This document shows positions 7,935 to 30,193 of a DNA stretch of 64,000 bases, piece after piece. The first letter of the stretch is position 1, and each line of letters opens with the position of its first letter. This DNA is from Thermoleophilaceae bacterium. Lineage in GTDB: Bacteria; Actinomycetota; Thermoleophilia; Solirubrobacterales; Thermoleophilaceae. The stretch lies in NCBI GenBank assembly GCA_036378175.1, contig DASUWY010000047.1, forward strand, positions 1-64,000, read 5' to 3'. The position numbers were made by a program, and so were the translations under genes. The notes under the pieces were generated by a model. The model had not been told where the DNA came from. It worked only from the letters and a program-made list of their open reading frames with translations, and did not search any database.

Positions 7935-7961
7935 TGAAGAACCGCTGACCGCTGCCGATTA
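7935..7961 (+). promoter_or_regulatory. sigma-28-type promoter of pilA1
   Basis: TGAA at 7935-7938, a 15-nt spacer, then GCCGATTA at 7954-7961. The -10 is close to the FliA/SigD/WhiG consensus GCCGATAA, and the -35 has one mismatch from TAAA. It is the weakest of the five related sites in this locus. The leader to the ATG at 8036 would be about 70 nt. Confidence 0.55.
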
Positions 7962-8035: not shown

Positions 8036-8485
8036 ATGCTGCGGAAGCTCAGCGCCCGCATCAACTCGGAGGAGTCCGGCTTCACTCTGATCGAGCTCCT
8101 CGTCGTGATCCTGATCATCGGCATCCTCGCCGCGATCGCCCTGCCGAACTTCCTCGGCCAGCGCACCAAGGCTCAGGACAGCTCGGCCAAGTCCGACGCT
8201 CGCAACCTCGTGTCTCAGCTCGAGTCGTGCTACACGGACAACAACACCTACGCCGGCAGCACCGCTTCCGGCACCTCGCAGAGCACCTGCCTGCCGACCA
8301 ACACCGGCATCGCGATCGGCGCCGGCAAGGGCAAGGTCGACGTGACCGCGGCCGACGCCAGCACCTACACCGTCACCGCCACGTCGCAGTCCGGCAACAC
8401 CTTCACCATCAAGAAGGACTCCGCCGGCACGACCACTCGCAGCTGCACCGGCTCGAACGGCGGCTGCTCCGGCGGCACCTGGTAG
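8036..8485 (+). CDS. pilA: type IV major pilin PilA, copy 1
   Basis: A 149-residue prepilin. The type III signal is a short basic leader ending in EESG, with cleavage by prepilin peptidase after G15. The mature protein would begin FTLIELLVV with the conserved Glu at position 5 (E20), followed by the hydrophobic alpha1 spine to about residue 40. The globular domain carries paired cysteines (LESCYTDN and STCLPTN; a second pair SCTGSNGGC near the end) that fit two disulphides. An AAGGAGGG ribosome-binding site lies at 8023-8030. It is closely related to copies 2 and 3. It has its own promoter and terminator. Confidence 0.93.
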   Translation: MLRKLSARINSEESGFTLIELLVVILIIGILAAIALPNFLGQRTKAQDSSAKSDARNLVSQLESCYTDNNTYAGSTASGTSQSTCLPTNTGIAIGAGKGKVDVTAADASTYTVTATSQSGNTFTIKKDSAGTTTRSCTGSNGGCSGGTW

Positions 8486-8558: not shown

Positions 8559-8586
8559 TAAAGGTCCGCTTTCTGACAGCCGATAG
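8559..8586 (+). promoter_or_regulatory. sigma-28-type promoter of pilA2
   Basis: TAAA at 8559-8562 (in CTAAAGG), a 16-nt spacer, and GCCGATAG at 8579-8586. This is nearly the full FliA/WhiG consensus. The leader to ATG 8628 would be about 35 nt, with AGGAGGT just upstream of the start. Confidence 0.75.
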
Positions 8587-8627: not shown

Positions 8628-9077
8628 ATGCTGCGGAAGCTCCGCGCGCGTATTCAGTCCGAGGAGTCCGGTTTCACCCTTATCGAGCTCCTCGTCGTCA
8701 TCTTGATCATCGGCATCCTGGCCGCGATCGCTCTGCCGAACTTCCTCGGCCAGCGCACCAAGGCCCAGGACAGCTCCGCCAAGTCCGATGCTCGCAACAT
8801 GGTGTCGCAGCTCGAGTCCTGCTACACCGACAACAACACCTACACCGGCAGCACCGCTTCCGGGACCACGGCCAGCACCTGTCTGCCGACCAACACCGGT
8901 CTGTCGATCGGCGGCGGCAAGGGCCAGGTGAACGTGACGGCGGCCGACGACAGCACGTACACCGTCGTCGCGACGTCGAAGTCGAACAACACGTTCACGA
9001 TCACGAAGACGGCCGGCGGCACCACGAGCCGCACCTGCACCGGCTCGAACGGCGGCTGCTCCGGCGGCAGCTGGTAG
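8628..9077 (+). CDS. pilA: type IV major pilin PilA, copy 2
   Basis: A 149-residue prepilin with the same EESG/FTLIE cleavage site as copy 1. It differs from copy 3 at only four residues (two in the GTTAST segment, one N/D after GKGQV, one G/S near the end), so the two are a recent duplication or are kept alike by gene conversion. Two probable disulphides lie in the globular domain. AGGAGGT precedes the ATG. The gene is a monocistronic unit between its own sigma-28-type promoter and a strong terminator. Confidence 0.93.
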   Translation: MLRKLRARIQSEESGFTLIELLVVILIIGILAAIALPNFLGQRTKAQDSSAKSDARNMVSQLESCYTDNNTYTGSTASGTTASTCLPTNTGLSIGGGKGQVNVTAADDSTYTVVATSKSNNTFTITKTAGGTTSRTCTGSNGGCSGGSW

Positions 9078-9146: not shown

Positions 9147-9174
9147 TAAAGGATCTCCCGCTTCCTGGCGATAA
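9147..9174 (+). promoter_or_regulatory. sigma-28-type promoter of the riboswitch-pilA3 unit
   Basis: TAAA at 9147-9150 (in CTAAAGG), a 16-nt spacer, then GGCGATAA at 9167-9174. Spacing is identical to the pilA2 and pilM sites. The predicted start, near 9181, places the riboswitch at the very 5' end of the transcript, which supports both calls. Confidence 0.75.
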
Positions 9175-9188
9175 GCCCTGCAAGTCAG

Positions 9189-9277
9189 GGCCACGGTGAA
9201 GGGCAAACCCGTCGCGAGGCGGGGGCGCAAAGCTACGGGGCTCCTGCGTGGAGCCGGCTGAGCTGCCAACCAAGGCC
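9189..9277 (+). ncRNA. c-di-GMP-I (GEMM) riboswitch upstream of pilA3
   Basis: The core reads AGGGCAAACC, then a helix CCCGTC/GGCGGG closed by a GCGA (GNRA) tetraloop, then GGGGCGCAAAGCTACGGG. A third helix, GGCTCC/GGAGCC, follows with loop TGCGT. The outer P1 helix is formed by GGCC..GGT (9189-9197) with ACC..GGCC near 9268-9277. Order, spacing and the conserved strings fit the GEMM-I fold, including the tetraloop that docks on the third helix. AGGGCAAACC is the same as in the Vibrio Vc2 aptamer as I remember it, which favours c-di-GMP over c-AMP-GMP. It regulates the downstream pilin. Confidence 0.88.
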
Positions 9278-9290
9278 GCCGCGGCGTTCT

Positions 9291-9324
9291 GACCACAACC
9301 CAAACAATCCTCATGGAGGAGGTC
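9291..9324 (+). promoter_or_regulatory. hairpin masking the pilA3 ribosome-binding site
   Basis: TCCTC (9308-9312) and GAGGA (9316-9320) flank an ATG loop, and GACC (9291-9294) can pair with GGTC (9321-9324) outside them. The helix occludes the GGAGGAGGT ribosome-binding site of pilA3. The ribosome-binding sites of the other pilins have no such partner. It lies 14 nt beyond the aptamer and is the obvious candidate for the riboswitch expression platform. Confidence 0.5.
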
Positions 9325-9330
9325 ACGCGA

Positions 9331-9780
9331 ATGCTGCGGAAGCTCCGCGCTCGTATTCAGTCCGAGGAGTCCGGTTTCACCCTGATCGAGCTCCTGGTCG
9401 TCATCCTGATCATCGGCATCCTGGCCGCGATCGCTCTGCCGAACTTCCTCGGCCAGCGCACCAAGGCCCAGGACAGCTCGGCGAAGTCTGACGCCCGCAA
9501 CATGGTGTCGCAGCTCGAGTCCTGCTACACCGACAACAACACCTACACCGGCAGCACCGCTTCCGGCACCTCGACCAGCACCTGTCTGCCGACCAACACC
9601 GGTCTGTCGATCGGCGGCGGCAAGGGCCAGGTCGACGTGACGGCGGCCGACGACAGCACGTACACCGTCGTCGCGACGTCGAAGTCGAACAACACGTTCA
9701 CGATCACGAAGACGGCCAGCGGCACCACGAGCCGCACCTGCACCGGCTCGAACGGCGGCTGCTCCGGCGGCAGCTGGTAG
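9331..9780 (+). CDS. pilA: type IV major pilin PilA, copy 3 (riboswitch-controlled)
   Basis: The start is taken at ATG 9331, giving the same 149-residue prepilin as copies 1 and 2. An upstream in-frame ATG at 9313 overlaps the GGAGGAGGT ribosome-binding site and is unlikely to be used. Cleavage falls after EESG (G15), then FTLIE. The protein is 145/149 identical to copy 2 and shares its two presumed disulphides. What sets it apart is the leader: a c-di-GMP-I aptamer and an anti-Shine-Dalgarno hairpin. Production of this copy should therefore respond to the second messenger directly at RNA level. Confidence 0.93.
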   Translation: MLRKLRARIQSEESGFTLIELLVVILIIGILAAIALPNFLGQRTKAQDSSAKSDARNMVSQLESCYTDNNTYTGSTASGTSTSTCLPTNTGLSIGGGKGQVDVTAADDSTYTVVATSKSNNTFTITKTASGTTSRTCTGSNGGCSGGSW

Positions 9781-9805: not shown

Positions 9806-9835
9806 GACGAGGCGGGCCTCCGGGCCCGCCTCGTC
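9806..9835 (+). terminator. rho-independent terminator after pilA3
   Basis: A perfect 13-bp stem begins GACGAGGCGGGCC (9806-9818), closed by a TCCG loop and followed by CGTTTTCG. It is nearly the same sequence as the pilA2 terminator, consistent with duplication of the whole unit. Confidence 0.85.
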
Positions 9836-9854: not shown

Positions 9855-9881
9855 TAACGATCCCGCGCGAGCGGTCGATAC
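9855..9881 (+). promoter_or_regulatory. sigma-28-type promoter of pilA4
   Basis: TAAC at 9855-9858, a 15-nt spacer, and GTCGATAC at 9874-9881. The -35 has one mismatch and the spacer is one base shorter than at pilA2, pilA3 and pilM. Confidence 0.55.
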
Positions 9882-9921: not shown

Positions 9922-10374
9922 ATGTTTCAGAGGCTCGCCAAGCGCCTCGCAGTGGAGGAGTCCGGTTTCACCCTGATCGAGCTCCTCGTAGTCATCTTGA
10001 TCATCGGCATCCTGGCCGCAATCGCGCTGCCCAACTTCCTCAGCCAGCGCGACAAGGCGCAGGACTCGAACGCGAAGTCGGACGCCCGCAACCTCGTGTC
10101 GCAGCTCGAGTCGTGCTTCACCGACAACGACACCTACACGGGCAGCACCGTCTCCGGATCGAGCGTGAGCTCGTGTCTCGGCACGGATACGGGGCTGGCG
10201 ATCGGTCCCGGCAAGGCCAAGGTCGACGTGACCTTCGCCAACGACAAGGGCTTCATCGTCGTCGCGACCTCCCGGAACGGCGACACGTTCTCGATCACGA
10301 AGAACGTGAACAGCGGCGTGATCAGCCGCAGCTGCTCGGGATCGAACGGCAGCTGCATCGGCGGCAGCTGGTAG
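9922..10374 (+). CDS. pilA: type IV pilin PilA, copy 4 (divergent)
   Basis: A 150-residue prepilin with the EESG/FTLIE site after G15. The alpha1 helix is almost unchanged, but the globular domain diverges from copies 1-3 (for example AKVDVTFANDKGFIVVATS). The cysteine pattern is kept (LESCFTDN, SSCLGTD, RSCSGSNGSC). CAGGAGGTC at 9909-9917 is the ribosome-binding site. Probably an alternative major or abundant minor pilin. It has its own promoter and terminator. Confidence 0.92.
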   Translation: MFQRLAKRLAVEESGFTLIELLVVILIIGILAAIALPNFLSQRDKAQDSNAKSDARNLVSQLESCFTDNDTYTGSTVSGSSVSSCLGTDTGLAIGPGKAKVDVTFANDKGFIVVATSRNGDTFSITKNVNSGVISRSCSGSNGSCIGGSW

Positions 10375-14429: not shown

Positions 14430-15176
14430 ATGGAAACGGCCTTCGCAGGCATCTCTGGCGCCGTCATCGGCTCCTTCCTGAATGTGGTGGTGTACCGGCT
14501 CCCGATCGGGCAGTCGCTCGTGAAGCCGCGTTCGCACTGCCCGAGCTGCCAGACGCCGGTGTCGCCGCGCGACAACGTGCCGCTGCTCTCGTGGCTCTTC
14601 CTCAAGGGCCGCTGCCGGCACTGCGGCGAGACGATCTCGGCGCGCTACCCGGCGGTCGAGCTGCTCACGGCGCTCTGCTTCGTGGGCGTGGTGCTCGCGC
14701 ACGGGGTACACGCCGAGCTGATCGCGCTGATCCCGTTCACCGCCGTGTTGATCGCGGTCACGTTCATAGACCTCCAGCACAAGATCGTGCCCAACCGGAT
14801 CGTCGCGCCCGCGGCGGTGTACGGGCTCGTGACGGCGGTGGCGTTCAGAACACACGCGCTGCCCGAGCTCCTGATAGCCGGGGCCGGCGCGTTCACCTTC
14901 TTCCTCGTCGCCGCGCTCATCCACCCGAAGGGCATGGGGATGGGTGACGTGAAGCTCGCCGGCGTGATGGGCCTCTACCTCGGAAAGCTCGTGATCCCGG
15001 CGCTCGTGATCGCCTTCGTCGTGGGCACCGTGGTGGGCATCGTGCTGGTTGTCCGGCACGGCGCGCGCTCGCGCAAGGTCGGCGTCCCGTTCGCCCCGTT
15101 CATGGCGCTCGGGGGCCTCGTGGCGATGCTCGCCGGGCAGCAGCTCATCGACTTCTATCTGGACAACCTGCGCTGA
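14430..15176 (+). CDS. pilD: type IV prepilin peptidase (PilD/GspO)
   Basis: The protein has 248 residues. The N-terminal part GAVIGSFLNVVVYRLP is the family opening. Two CxxC pairs (CPSC and CRHC) form the zinc-binding cytoplasmic loop that accompanies N-methyltransferase activity. The two catalytic aspartates of the aspartyl protease are in FIDLQHKIVPN and GMGMGDVKLAG. About seven transmembrane helices are visible. It removes the leader from all prepilins encoded upstream and methylates the new N-terminal Phe. The ribosome-binding site is weak. Confidence 0.93.
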   Translation: METAFAGISGAVIGSFLNVVVYRLPIGQSLVKPRSHCPSCQTPVSPRDNVPLLSWLFLKGRCRHCGETISARYPAVELLTALCFVGVVLAHGVHAELIALIPFTAVLIAVTFIDLQHKIVPNRIVAPAAVYGLVTAVAFRTHALPELLIAGAGAFTFFLVAALIHPKGMGMGDVKLAGVMGLYLGKLVIPALVIAFVVGTVVGIVLVVRHGARSRKVGVPFAPFMALGGLVAMLAGQQLIDFYLDNLR

Positions 15177-15259: not shown

Positions 15260-16234
15260 ATGGCCCTAACCCTCGGCAAAAAGAACCCTCGCGGATCCGT
15301 CGGCCTTGACCTCGACGGCGCCTTCGTCGCCGCCGTGCAGGCGCAGGACGGCCGCATCTCCCGTGCCGCCAGCATGGAGCTGCCGAGCGGGGTGATCACG
15401 GACGGCGAGGTGACCGACGTCGACCGCCTCACCGAGAGCCTCAAGACCTTCTTCAAGGAGAACGATCTCCCGACCCGTGTCCGGCTTGGCGTGTCGAACC
15501 AGCAGATAGTCGTGCGCCATCTCGAGCTGCCACTGATCGAGGAGCAGGCCGAGCTGGCCGCCGCGGTGCGCTTCCAGGCCGCCGAGGCGATCGCCATGCC
15601 TCTTGACGAGGCGGTGCTCGACTATCAGGTGGTCGGTCAGGCGACGAGCCCCGAGGGTTCGCCTCGACTGCGCGTCGTCGTCGTGGCCGCCCGCCAGGCG
15701 ATGATCGAGCGCTTTGTCGAGGGCGTGCGCGCCGCCGGGCTCAAGCCCGAGGGCATCGACCTCAACGCGTTCGCCCTCGTCCGCGCGCTCGCCAAGGACG
15801 AGGCGAAGCAGGCGGCCGCCGCCGGTGAAGAGACCGCGCCGATCCCGATGCAGCAGCTCGCGTGCGTGTACTGCCACCTGGGCGGCGTGACCAACCTCGC
15901 CGTGGCCGTCGGCACGAGCTGCCTCTTCACGCGCCCGCTCTCCACGGACTGGAGCGACGAGGGCGATCACGTGGCCGCCGCGCTCGCGGAGGAGATCCGC
16001 CTCTCCATCGACTTCTACATGGCCCAGCCCGATGCCCGCCCGGTCGGCGAGGTGCAGCTGTCCGGCCCCGGCTCCGCCATCGCGGGCCTGGCCGATGAGC
16101 TGTCCGCCCTGATCCATCTTCCGGTGTCCGTGGCCGACCCGCTTGGCGGGCTCGACGCGAGCGGCGCCCTTGACGGCGAGGACCCGCACCGCCACACCGT
16201 GGCCGCCGGCCTCGCGCTCGGAGCGGCGGCATGA
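15260..16234 (+). CDS. pilM: type IV pilus assembly ATPase PilM
   Basis: A 324-residue actin-like cytoplasmic ring protein. GSVGLDLDGAFVAAVQ is the phosphate-1 strand, VRLGVSNQQIVVRHLELP and LDYQVVGQ are PilM landmarks, and EVQLSGPGSAIAGLADELS is the adenosine motif. ATG 15260 is preferred over ATG 15221 because the latter sits inside the promoter; AAGCAGG lies 9 nt upstream of 15260. The stop overlaps pilN as ATGA. PilM binds the N-terminus of PilN and connects the pilus motor to the periplasmic alignment complex. Confidence 0.9.
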   Translation: MALTLGKKNPRGSVGLDLDGAFVAAVQAQDGRISRAASMELPSGVITDGEVTDVDRLTESLKTFFKENDLPTRVRLGVSNQQIVVRHLELPLIEEQAELAAAVRFQAAEAIAMPLDEAVLDYQVVGQATSPEGSPRLRVVVVAARQAMIERFVEGVRAAGLKPEGIDLNAFALVRALAKDEAKQAAAAGEETAPIPMQQLACVYCHLGGVTNLAVAVGTSCLFTRPLSTDWSDEGDHVAAALAEEIRLSIDFYMAQPDARPVGEVQLSGPGSAIAGLADELSALIHLPVSVADPLGGLDASGALDGEDPHRHTVAAGLALGAAA

Positions 16235-29800: not shown

Positions 29801-30193
29801 AGCAAGGAGCTCGAGCGCGCGCGGCCGGGGCGGCGGGTCAGGCTTGCCGGCCTCGTGGTGGCGCGGCAGCGGCCCGCGACGGCCAACGGTGTCACGTTCA
29901 TGCTGCTCGAGGATGAGCACGGAACGATCAACCTGATCGTGCCACCGCCGATATACGACCGCTGCCGGCTCGCGATTCGGACCGAGCCGCTCATCGCTGC
30001 GGAGGGCCGGCTCGAGCGCCGGTCCGGCACCACCAACGTGATCGTGGACGTGGTGAGCCGGCTCGAGCGGCCCGACCTTCCGCAGGCCGAGGTGCGGCAC
30101 ATCGAGCCGCGCCGTGTGTGGTCGAACGACGACACGGACGAGCTGCGCGCGGTCGCCCCGGTGGCGCACAGCTTCGGGAGGAGGGGAAGGTGA
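26885..30193 (+). CDS. dnaE2: error-prone DNA polymerase III alpha subunit DnaE2
   Basis: The protein has 1102 residues, DnaE2 length and clearly shorter than replicative DnaE1. N-terminal PHP domain: ELHSHSAYSFLDGASLP, LTDHDGLHGAMEF. The palm has the catalytic triad region GRGRGSSVSSIVCYLTGLSHIDP and MPDIDLDFPRDIRE (Asp residues). A helix-hairpin-helix region (SLADLAARCSAQSDALEKLAWAG) is followed by an OB fold (RRVRLAGLVVARQRPATANG). It performs translesion synthesis with ImuB under SOS. Reading through from the imuB promoter or a promoter within the palindromic element is possible; no SOS box lies directly ahead of it. Confidence 0.95.
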   Translation: MYVELHSHSAYSFLDGASLPVELAAVAVEQGYSAMALTDHDGLHGAMEFAQAAGPLGLRPITGAEVTLDDGHHLTLLCETREGYRNLCRLITSAHEHTRVRPAEPTPPKVSLEDVERHADGLVCLSGCARDGALAARLERREHAAAAALGRRLLRAFGRERFRVELQRPFARHDRRRNRLLSELAERLGVPCVATGNVHAHVRARVALQDAFVAVRLGTTLDESEPARRGNTSHVLASPEAMAARFSDHPEAVHESGRLAERLEFDITRDLGYRYPGSEDGSADRRLAELCTQRLIERYHNGGNRGGRSSNLREAEARLEEELRIIRTLKLSGFFLLHRDMLELAREVACEVRGPDTARALLPPGRGRGSSVSSIVCYLTGLSHIDPIENRLLMGRFLNEEIRAMPDIDLDFPRDIREVLIPRVIERYGEDRAALVSSFACYRTRGAVRDFAKALGLPPGEVERAARSVDPWSADEIELDMEKAIGGGVGKGRIENSPRWRALVQLVQDAHGLPRHVSQHPGGMVIATEPLCEICPIQPAAMTGRQIVQWDKDSCSDAGFLKIDLLGLGMLSAVERCVEEIARVRGERIDLSRIPFDDQDVFRSIQVADTTGTFQIESRAQMQMLVQTLPESLDDLTVQVALVRPGPILGGAVHPYIERRKLLRADPEYEVPYEHPSLEPALKDTLGTIVFQDQVIETAMAFAGFSAGEAEGLRRAMSRRRSEEAMRAYEKKFIEGAMANGASRESAERVYKQIVGFSGFGFPKAHSAAFGLLAYQSAWLREHYGPEFLCGLLNEQPMGFYPPDALVHEAQRRKLAILPADVLASDVLCRVEDGESLAVRLGLGYVLGVREADVRGIVEERERGGPFTSLADLAARCSAQSDALEKLAWAGACDSLCSGRREALWLLGVSAPGVSVRGGVQLALPLDTGHPPEFKELTPWERMVADYGSTHVTLREHPLELLRPRLPEDMLSSKELERARPGRRVRLAGLVVARQRPATANGVTFMLLEDEHGTINLIVPPPIYDRCRLAIRTEPLIAAEGRLERRSGTTNVIVDVVSRLERPDLPQAEVRHIEPRRVWSNDDTDELRAVAPVAHSFGRRGR

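What the first reader, a model, noticed from the sequence alone, without database searches (positions are those of the whole stretch)
9189..9277. c-di-GMP-I riboswitch controlling a major type IV pilin in an actinobacterium
The sequence between the pilA2 terminator and pilA3 has the GEMM-I core in the right order: AGGGCAAACC, a GNRA-capped second helix, GCGCAAAGCTACGGG, a third hairpin and a closing P1 helix. Only one of four tandem pilins carries it, so the cell can change pilin supply or composition directly with c-di-GMP.
Basis: partly seen in the sequence, partly recalled or inferred. Interest (0 to 1): 0.85.

Follow-up and report, generated by a model that had tools for sequence, protein, structure and literature searches.

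The report
c-di-GMP riboswitch on a pilin gene
The stretch before one of four neighbouring pilin genes in this actinobacterium is a real, ordinary-looking c-di-GMP riboswitch; comparison shows that it is conserved on pilin genes across the class Thermoleophilia, together with a promoter of the WhiG type that c-di-GMP is known to control elsewhere, so the same small molecule probably acts twice on the same pilin message.

Summary
Window 9193-9271 (+) matches Rfam's c-di-GMP-I (GEMM-I) models at about 60 bits (E 1e-11 in 64 kb), the only RNA-family hit in the window; only pilA3 of four tandem pilins carries it. The top Rfam name is the variant RF03167 (GGC), but RF01051 scores 60.6 and the pocket base that separates the two consensus lines is the canonical A in 45 of 45 pilA aptamers, so I call it canonical c-di-GMP-I. 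It is not isolated: 45 pilA leaders in 5 families of the class carry the aptamer. In three families these leaders start at a WhiG/sigma-28-type promoter (23 of 44 with at most 2 mismatches; none in simulations) and enclose the aptamer in an outer helix P0 (swap test P 0.00014). The genome encodes WhiG and a single-motif RsiG, the c-di-GMP-dependent anti-sigma pair. So c-di-GMP probably acts on this pilin at transcription and again in the leader. The window leader has no terminator; I infer translational control, c-di-GMP most likely OFF, but folding does not settle the sign. The window copy has the shortest P1-P2 joint of 45 and needs testing. Known kind of riboswitch, interesting two-tier wiring.

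The parts
9147..9174 (+). WhiG/sigma-28-type promoter of pilA3: TAAA (9147-9150), 16 nt, GGCGATAA (9167-9174); transcript start predicted near 9181
   Evidence: 1 mismatch to TAAA-N15/16-GCCGATAA; same motif before 23/44 riboswitch-pilA leaders at <=2 mismatches, Markov expectation 0
9184..9196 (+). 5' strand of outer helix P0 (GUCAGGGCCACGG)
   Evidence: pairs with 9279-9293; own-versus-swapped test P 0.00014 on 37 leaders; MFE of the nascent leader
9193..9271 (+). c-di-GMP-I (GEMM-I) riboswitch aptamer; pocket bases by homology G20=9202, C46=9228, A47=9229, C92=9266
   Evidence: pocket numbering from knowledge of Vc2
9195..9198 (+). P1 5' strand (GGUG); partner 9267-9271 (C-A-ACC). Joint to P2 is only 4 nt, shortest of 45 leaders
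9279..9294 (+). segment X, 3' strand of P0; can pair instead with the pilA3 ribosome-binding site and start (9321-9339)
   Evidence: searches show the two exclusive folds; X:coding swap test P 0.012, 0.07 without one outlier
9308..9320 (+). small hairpin UCCUC-AUG-GAGGA at the Shine-Dalgarno sequence
   Evidence: sequence; not specific to riboswitch-bearing pilins
9331..9780 (+). pilA3, type IV pilin (N-methylation motif), the regulated gene; in-frame AUG also at 9313
8036..8485 (+). pilA1, no aptamer; WhiG-type promoter 7935-7961; leader keeps a P0-like hairpin
8628..9077 (+). pilA2, no aptamer, 97% identical to PilA3; WhiG-type promoter 8559-8586
9922..10374 (+). pilA4, no aptamer; weaker WhiG-like promoter at 9855 (3 mismatches)
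9806..9835 (+). intrinsic terminator after pilA3, so pilA3 looks monocistronic

Best explanation
This is a canonical c-di-GMP-I riboswitch in the leader of pilA3. Shown by sequence: aptamer, promoter, outer helix P0, absence of a terminator in the leader. Inferred: WhiG transcribes pilA3 from 9147-9174; the nascent leader first folds with P0 (9184-9196 with 9279-9293), which keeps segment X away from the ribosome-binding site. When c-di-GMP binds, P1 (9195-9198 with 9267-9271), which shares bases with the inner part of P0, is stabilised; P0 weakens; X pairs with the pilA3 start (9321-9339), and translation falls. c-di-GMP would then shut pilA3 twice, through RsiG-WhiG at the promoter and through the leader. 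The aptamer identity is near certain (about 0.95); translational rather than transcriptional action about 0.75; the OFF sign about 0.5. The confidence given is for the whole chain short of the exact sign-setting helix.
For: Covariance-model hits. Canonical pocket: A at position 47 in 45/45 pilA aptamers, as in the RF01051 consensus and unlike RF03167. 45 pilA leaders in families f1, f2, f3, f8, f9 carry it. P0 swap test P 0.00014 overall, 0.0045 in f1, 0.0034 in f2, control segment pairs not significant. Nascent leader folds with P0; adding RBS and coding sequence moves X to the start. WhiG-type promoters. WhiG with best PDB hit S. venezuelae WhiG 2e-87 and the c-di-GMP-contacting K-x3-G-R, and a 90-aa RsiG with E(X)3S(X)2R(X)3H(X)3D, PDB RsiG hits 2e-12 to 3e-9 (PMC8325347). 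29 GGDEF domains in the genome. OFF sign elsewhere in the class: in f8/f9 pilA leaders a terminator with U-run follows P1 and its 5' arm overlaps a 10-base perfect complement of the aptamer core.
Against: Equilibrium folding with P1 forced makes the start more closed in 13 and more open in 10 of 45 leaders, and for the window itself slightly more open (-1.5 kcal/mol). P1-P0 coupling favours OFF on average over full-length leaders (+1.1 kcal/mol, 23 against 9) but is about zero in nascent ones, and is negative in the window. X:coding covariation is marginal. The window aptamer has a 4-nt joint and an imperfect P1 and could be weak.
Confidence: 0.5

Rival explanations
1. ON switch: ligand-bound P1 stacks on P0 and closes its loop, P0 holds X away from the start, and pilA3 is translated only at high c-di-GMP, opposing the RsiG-WhiG arm.
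For: Some paralogous leaders without aptamer (window pilA1, L178, L179, L184) keep a constitutive P0-like hairpin, so P0 is likely the permissive state. In f3, P0 and P1 do not overlap. In the window P1 favours P0 by 2.4 kcal/mol. C. difficile pilA1 is switched on by c-di-GMP, though by a class II riboswitch (PMC6366702).
Against: In the f1 leaders P0 inner pairs use the P1 5' strand; coupling across 40 leaders is on average unfavourable.
Confidence: 0.25
2. Decayed riboswitch: the window copy no longer binds c-di-GMP well and the leader acts mainly through P0 (for example mRNA stability).
For: Shortest joint of 45 and an extra A in the P1 3' strand; leaders of other pilA paralogs look like decayed aptamers, L226, L239, L243.
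Against: All pocket bases, the GNRA loop and P2/P3 are intact and the CM score is above both cut-offs.
Confidence: 0.1
3. Transcriptional (Rho- or terminator-dependent) control in the leader.
For: f8/f9 homologues have an obvious terminator.
Against: No terminator between 9271 and 9331 in the window scan; no U-run hairpin seen in the f1-f3 linkers printed.
Confidence: 0.12
4. The ligand is not c-di-GMP (a GGC-variant ligand or cGAMP).
For: Best Rfam name is the variant family RF03167.
Against: G20, A47 and C92 are canonical; RF01051 scores at least as well.
Confidence: 0.03

Closest known systems
c-di-GMP-I riboswitch (GEMM-I, RF01051; Vc2, Cd1)
   Same: Aptamer core, pocket bases, GNRA-capped helix, position in a 5' leader
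   Different: Leader adds the outer helix P0 and starts at a WhiG-type promoter; no terminator in the window leader, unlike Cd1
c-di-GMP-I-GGC variant (RF03167)
   Same: Scores just above its cut-off (60.1 against 59)
   Different: Consensus G at position 47 is A here and in all 45 pilA relatives
Cdi-2-4, class II c-di-GMP riboswitch of C. difficile pilA1 (PMC6366702, PMC6200980)
   Same: c-di-GMP riboswitch on a major type IV pilin
   Different: Unrelated aptamer class, transcriptional ON switch, Bacillota
Geobacter pilM GEMM-I riboswitch (PMC9262584)
   Same: GEMM-I aptamer on a type IV pilus gene; P1 depends on ligand
   Different: Binds cGAMP, transcriptional ON switch
[quoted passage not shown]
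   Same: WhiG-type promoters before pil genes, single-motif RsiG and WhiG present
   Different: That paper contains no mention of a riboswitch (text search)

Membership tests
c-di-GMP-I riboswitch RF01051 | Covariance-model score over the curated cut-off | tested here: met
   60.6 bits against 35
c-di-GMP-I riboswitch RF01051 | Conserved pocket bases (G20, A47, C92) and GNRA-capped helix | tested here: met
   Bases read at 9202, 9229, 9266; consensus compared; A47 in 45/45; numbering from knowledge
c-di-GMP-I riboswitch RF01051 | P1 helix closing the junction | tested here: inconclusive
   GGUG:CACC in most relatives, GGCG:CGCC in L105, L109, L253; imperfect in the window
c-di-GMP-I riboswitch RF01051 | Selective c-di-GMP binding and ligand-dependent expression | not testable with these tools
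   needs binding and reporter assays
c-di-GMP-I-GGC RF03167 | Score over cut-off | tested here: met
   60.1 against 59
c-di-GMP-I-GGC RF03167 | G in place of A47 (its consensus CGCGAA) | tested here: not met
   CGCAAA in the window and in 45/45 pilA aptamers; that this base defines the variant is my inference from the two consensus lines
RsiG-WhiG regulon (promoter) | TAAA-N15-GCCGATAA promoter | tested here: met
   pilA3 1 mismatch with 16-nt spacer; 23/44 relatives <=2 mismatches
RsiG-WhiG regulon (promoter) | WhiG and c-di-GMP-binding RsiG encoded in the genome | tested here: met
   by sequence only
RsiG-WhiG regulon (promoter) | Transcription start mapped and WhiG-dependent | not testable with these tools
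   needs TSS mapping and a whiG deletion

The most novel reading that the evidence does not exclude
Across Thermoleophilia one second messenger acts twice on the same pilin transcript: c-di-GMP-armed RsiG holds back the sigma factor WhiG at the promoter, and a c-di-GMP riboswitch enclosed in a conserved outer helix P0 tunes the message that escapes, while sister pilins in the same array keep only the first tier.
Probability: 0.55. Interest if true: 0.68.

Novelty: new member of a known kind. Interest (0 to 1): 0.52.

Why it matters
c-di-GMP is known to act on pili through sigma/anti-sigma pairs, riboswitches or motor ATPases, each shown separately. Here sequence evidence puts two of these on the same leader, conserved over a class, with natural controls: paralogous pilins in the same array with the promoter but without the aptamer. 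That makes it testable why a cell would use two sensors of one signal in series.

Tried and rejected
Shine-Dalgarno hairpin as the switch: rejected, equally present in pilA paralogs without aptamer (Mann-Whitney p 0.89). Sign from ensemble folding: undecided. X:coding helix: only marginal covariation. MAFFT alignment of the linker for formal pair counting: strands of P0 misaligned, so an alignment-free swap test was used. First strict RsiG motif pattern found only chance hits; allowing His at the Gln position found the real one. First aptamer regex was too strict. Papers that, from memory, defined the GGC variant were not held.

Full report
The observation. cmscan of all 64 kb at gathering thresholds finds one RNA family, at 9193-9271 (+), RF03167 c-di-GMP-I-GGC, 60.1 bits (cut-off 59), E 1.1e-11. 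The parent model RF01051 scores the same place 60.6 bits against a cut-off of 35. None of the other three pilin leaders in the window gives a hit. The four genes pilA1-4 each have the type IV N-methylation motif; PilA2 and PilA3 are 97% identical. pilA3 is followed by an intrinsic terminator, so it looks monocistronic.

Which variant. The two Rfam consensus lines differ at the first A of CGCAAAG (RF01051) against CGCGAA (RF03167). By homology to Vc2 (from knowledge) this is A47, which stacks between the two guanines of the ligand. The window has A, and so do all 45 pilA-associated aptamers collected here. G20 is G, which by established knowledge favours c-di-GMP over cGAMP. I therefore treat the element as canonical c-di-GMP-I and the RF03167 label as a near tie. 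That the letters GGC name the pocket bases is my recollection; the papers I believe defined it were not held.

Distribution. The genome has a second copy, before a 31-aa hydrophobic peptide and a GGDEF-EAL gene. In the class, 165 of 399 genomes have an RF03167 match. Named relatives are Thermoleophilaceae and Solirubrobacterales MAGs, so the class is Thermoleophilia. In the window's family 13 aptamers lie 55-84 nt before PilA orthologues. Upstream regions of 100 further pilA genes were fetched. Aptamers were recognised there by a core pattern and the flanking sequence; cmscan on 20 of these loci, chosen mostly among the pattern hits, confirmed 17 at gathering thresholds. Counting one of two identical copies (L213/L214) once, 32 leaders carry the aptamer, in families f2, f3, f8 and f9. 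Total 45 with the window's family. A mosaic of pilins with and without aptamer in one array recurs, for instance in G224. Other family members of the riboswitch sit 8-14 nt before signal-peptide-like proteins, with the Shine-Dalgarno sequence right after the P1 3' strand, which suggests direct OFF control there.

Promoter. A scan for TAAA-N14-17-GCCGATAA, the consensus that PMC8325347 used for WhiG in Rubrobacter, finds five places with at most 2 mismatches on the + strand of the window (0.6 expected in Markov sequence): before pilA1, pilA2, pilA3, before the pilM-like gene at 15266, and one at 29928 that I did not examine. Upstream of 44 riboswitch-pilA leaders, 23 have at most 2 mismatches and 31 at most 3; simulated sequence gives 0 and 1%. 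The five f8/f9 leaders lack it. The genome encodes WhiG (best PDB match S. venezuelae WhiG, 2.4e-87) with K-x3-G-R at the c-di-GMP contact, and a 90-aa protein with one E(X)3S(X)2R(X)3H(X)3D motif that matches RsiG structures at 2e-12 to 3e-9. In Rubrobacter c-di-GMP arms RsiG to hold WhiG, and WhiG promoters drive pil genes (PMC8325347). Transfer to this organism is inference.

Leader architecture. In f1-f3 the predicted transcript begins just before a strand (window GUCAG, most others GCCAG) whose complement lies after the aptamer: GUCAG with CUGAC, GCCAG with CUGGC, in others GAGCUGGGGCU with GGCUCCGGCUC or GCCAAGGUC with GGCCUUGGC. An alignment-free test, pairing each leader's own strands against strands of other leaders, gives P 0.00014 for 37 leaders (f1 0.0045, f2 0.0034, f3 0.07; 0.00018 without the window), while the control segment pairs (5' leader with RBS or coding, aptamer core with linker or coding, linker with RBS) are not significant. 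The permutation ignores phylogeny, so P is nominal. Some aptamer-less paralogs, including window pilA1, keep a P0-like hairpin; by motif 13 of 65 do against about 8% expected, a modest excess.

Switching. The nascent window leader folds with P0; with ribosome-binding site and coding sequence present the 3' strand of P0 moves to the start codon region, and P1 can extend. This gives two exclusive states. Neither fold is much more stable than shuffled sequence (z about -1.3), so the folds are hypotheses, supported mainly by comparison. Across leaders the X:coding pairing has only marginal support (P 0.012; 0.07 without L224). Forcing P1 in ensemble folding does not give a consistent sign. A hairpin at the Shine-Dalgarno sequence is not specific to riboswitch-bearing genes. 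In f8/f9, however, four leaders have a terminator with a U-run after P1 and a 10-base perfect complement of the aptamer core GGCAAACCAC reaching into its 5' arm: an antiterminator that a folded aptamer would prevent, so c-di-GMP should be OFF there. On that and on agreement with RsiG-WhiG I commit to OFF for the window at about 0.5.

Caveats. The window copy has the shortest joint between P1 and P2 of 45 (4 nt; 30 have 6) and an extra A in the P1 3' strand. Whether it binds as well as its relatives is open. No experiment was possible. PMC6366702 notes that regulatory attributes of c-di-GMP riboswitches cannot necessarily be carried from one species to another.

Comparison. A c-di-GMP riboswitch on a pilin is known from C. 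difficile (class II, ON; PMC6366702, PMC6200980) and a GEMM-I aptamer on a pilus gene from Geobacter (cGAMP, ON; PMC9262584). A search of the held literature for the combination with Thermoleophilia listed no paper holding all terms; subscription papers are mostly missing, so this is weak evidence of novelty. So: a new member of a known kind, with wiring that I have not found described.

Noticed in passing
L001:1501-1582 and downstream (C51:37226 of the same genome): Second c-di-GMP-I aptamer before a 31-aa hydrophobic peptide and a GGDEF-EAL gene; same arrangement twice in a genus relative (L093, L097), with a hairpin between P1 and the Shine-Dalgarno sequence.
   Followed up: partly
L270, L271, L274, L275 (pilA leaders of families f8/f9): Terminator plus perfect 10-base complement of the aptamer core: a clear terminator/antiterminator platform that predicts c-di-GMP OFF.
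   Followed up: partly
L143:668-940 (-): Single-motif RsiG (90 aa) in the window's genome, with WhiG in L132.
   Followed up: yes
window 9313-9331: In-frame AUG inside the Shine-Dalgarno region of pilA3 that would add six residues (MEEVTR) to the pilin leader peptide.
   Followed up: no
L226, L239, L236, L243, L244: pilA paralogs whose leaders keep P0-like or aptamer-like pieces but gave no aptamer match in my pattern scan, as if aptamers are being lost.
   Followed up: partly
L096, L098, L100, L103, L110 and others: c-di-GMP-I aptamers whose P1 3' strand runs straight into the Shine-Dalgarno sequence of signal-peptide proteins of unknown function.
   Followed up: no
G392 contig C108 (L108, L125): Two tandem pilins, each with its own riboswitch, and a third divergent pilin with one at 14647-14727.
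   Followed up: no
window 29928-29954: Another WhiG-like promoter match (2 mismatches), downstream gene not examined.
   Followed up: no
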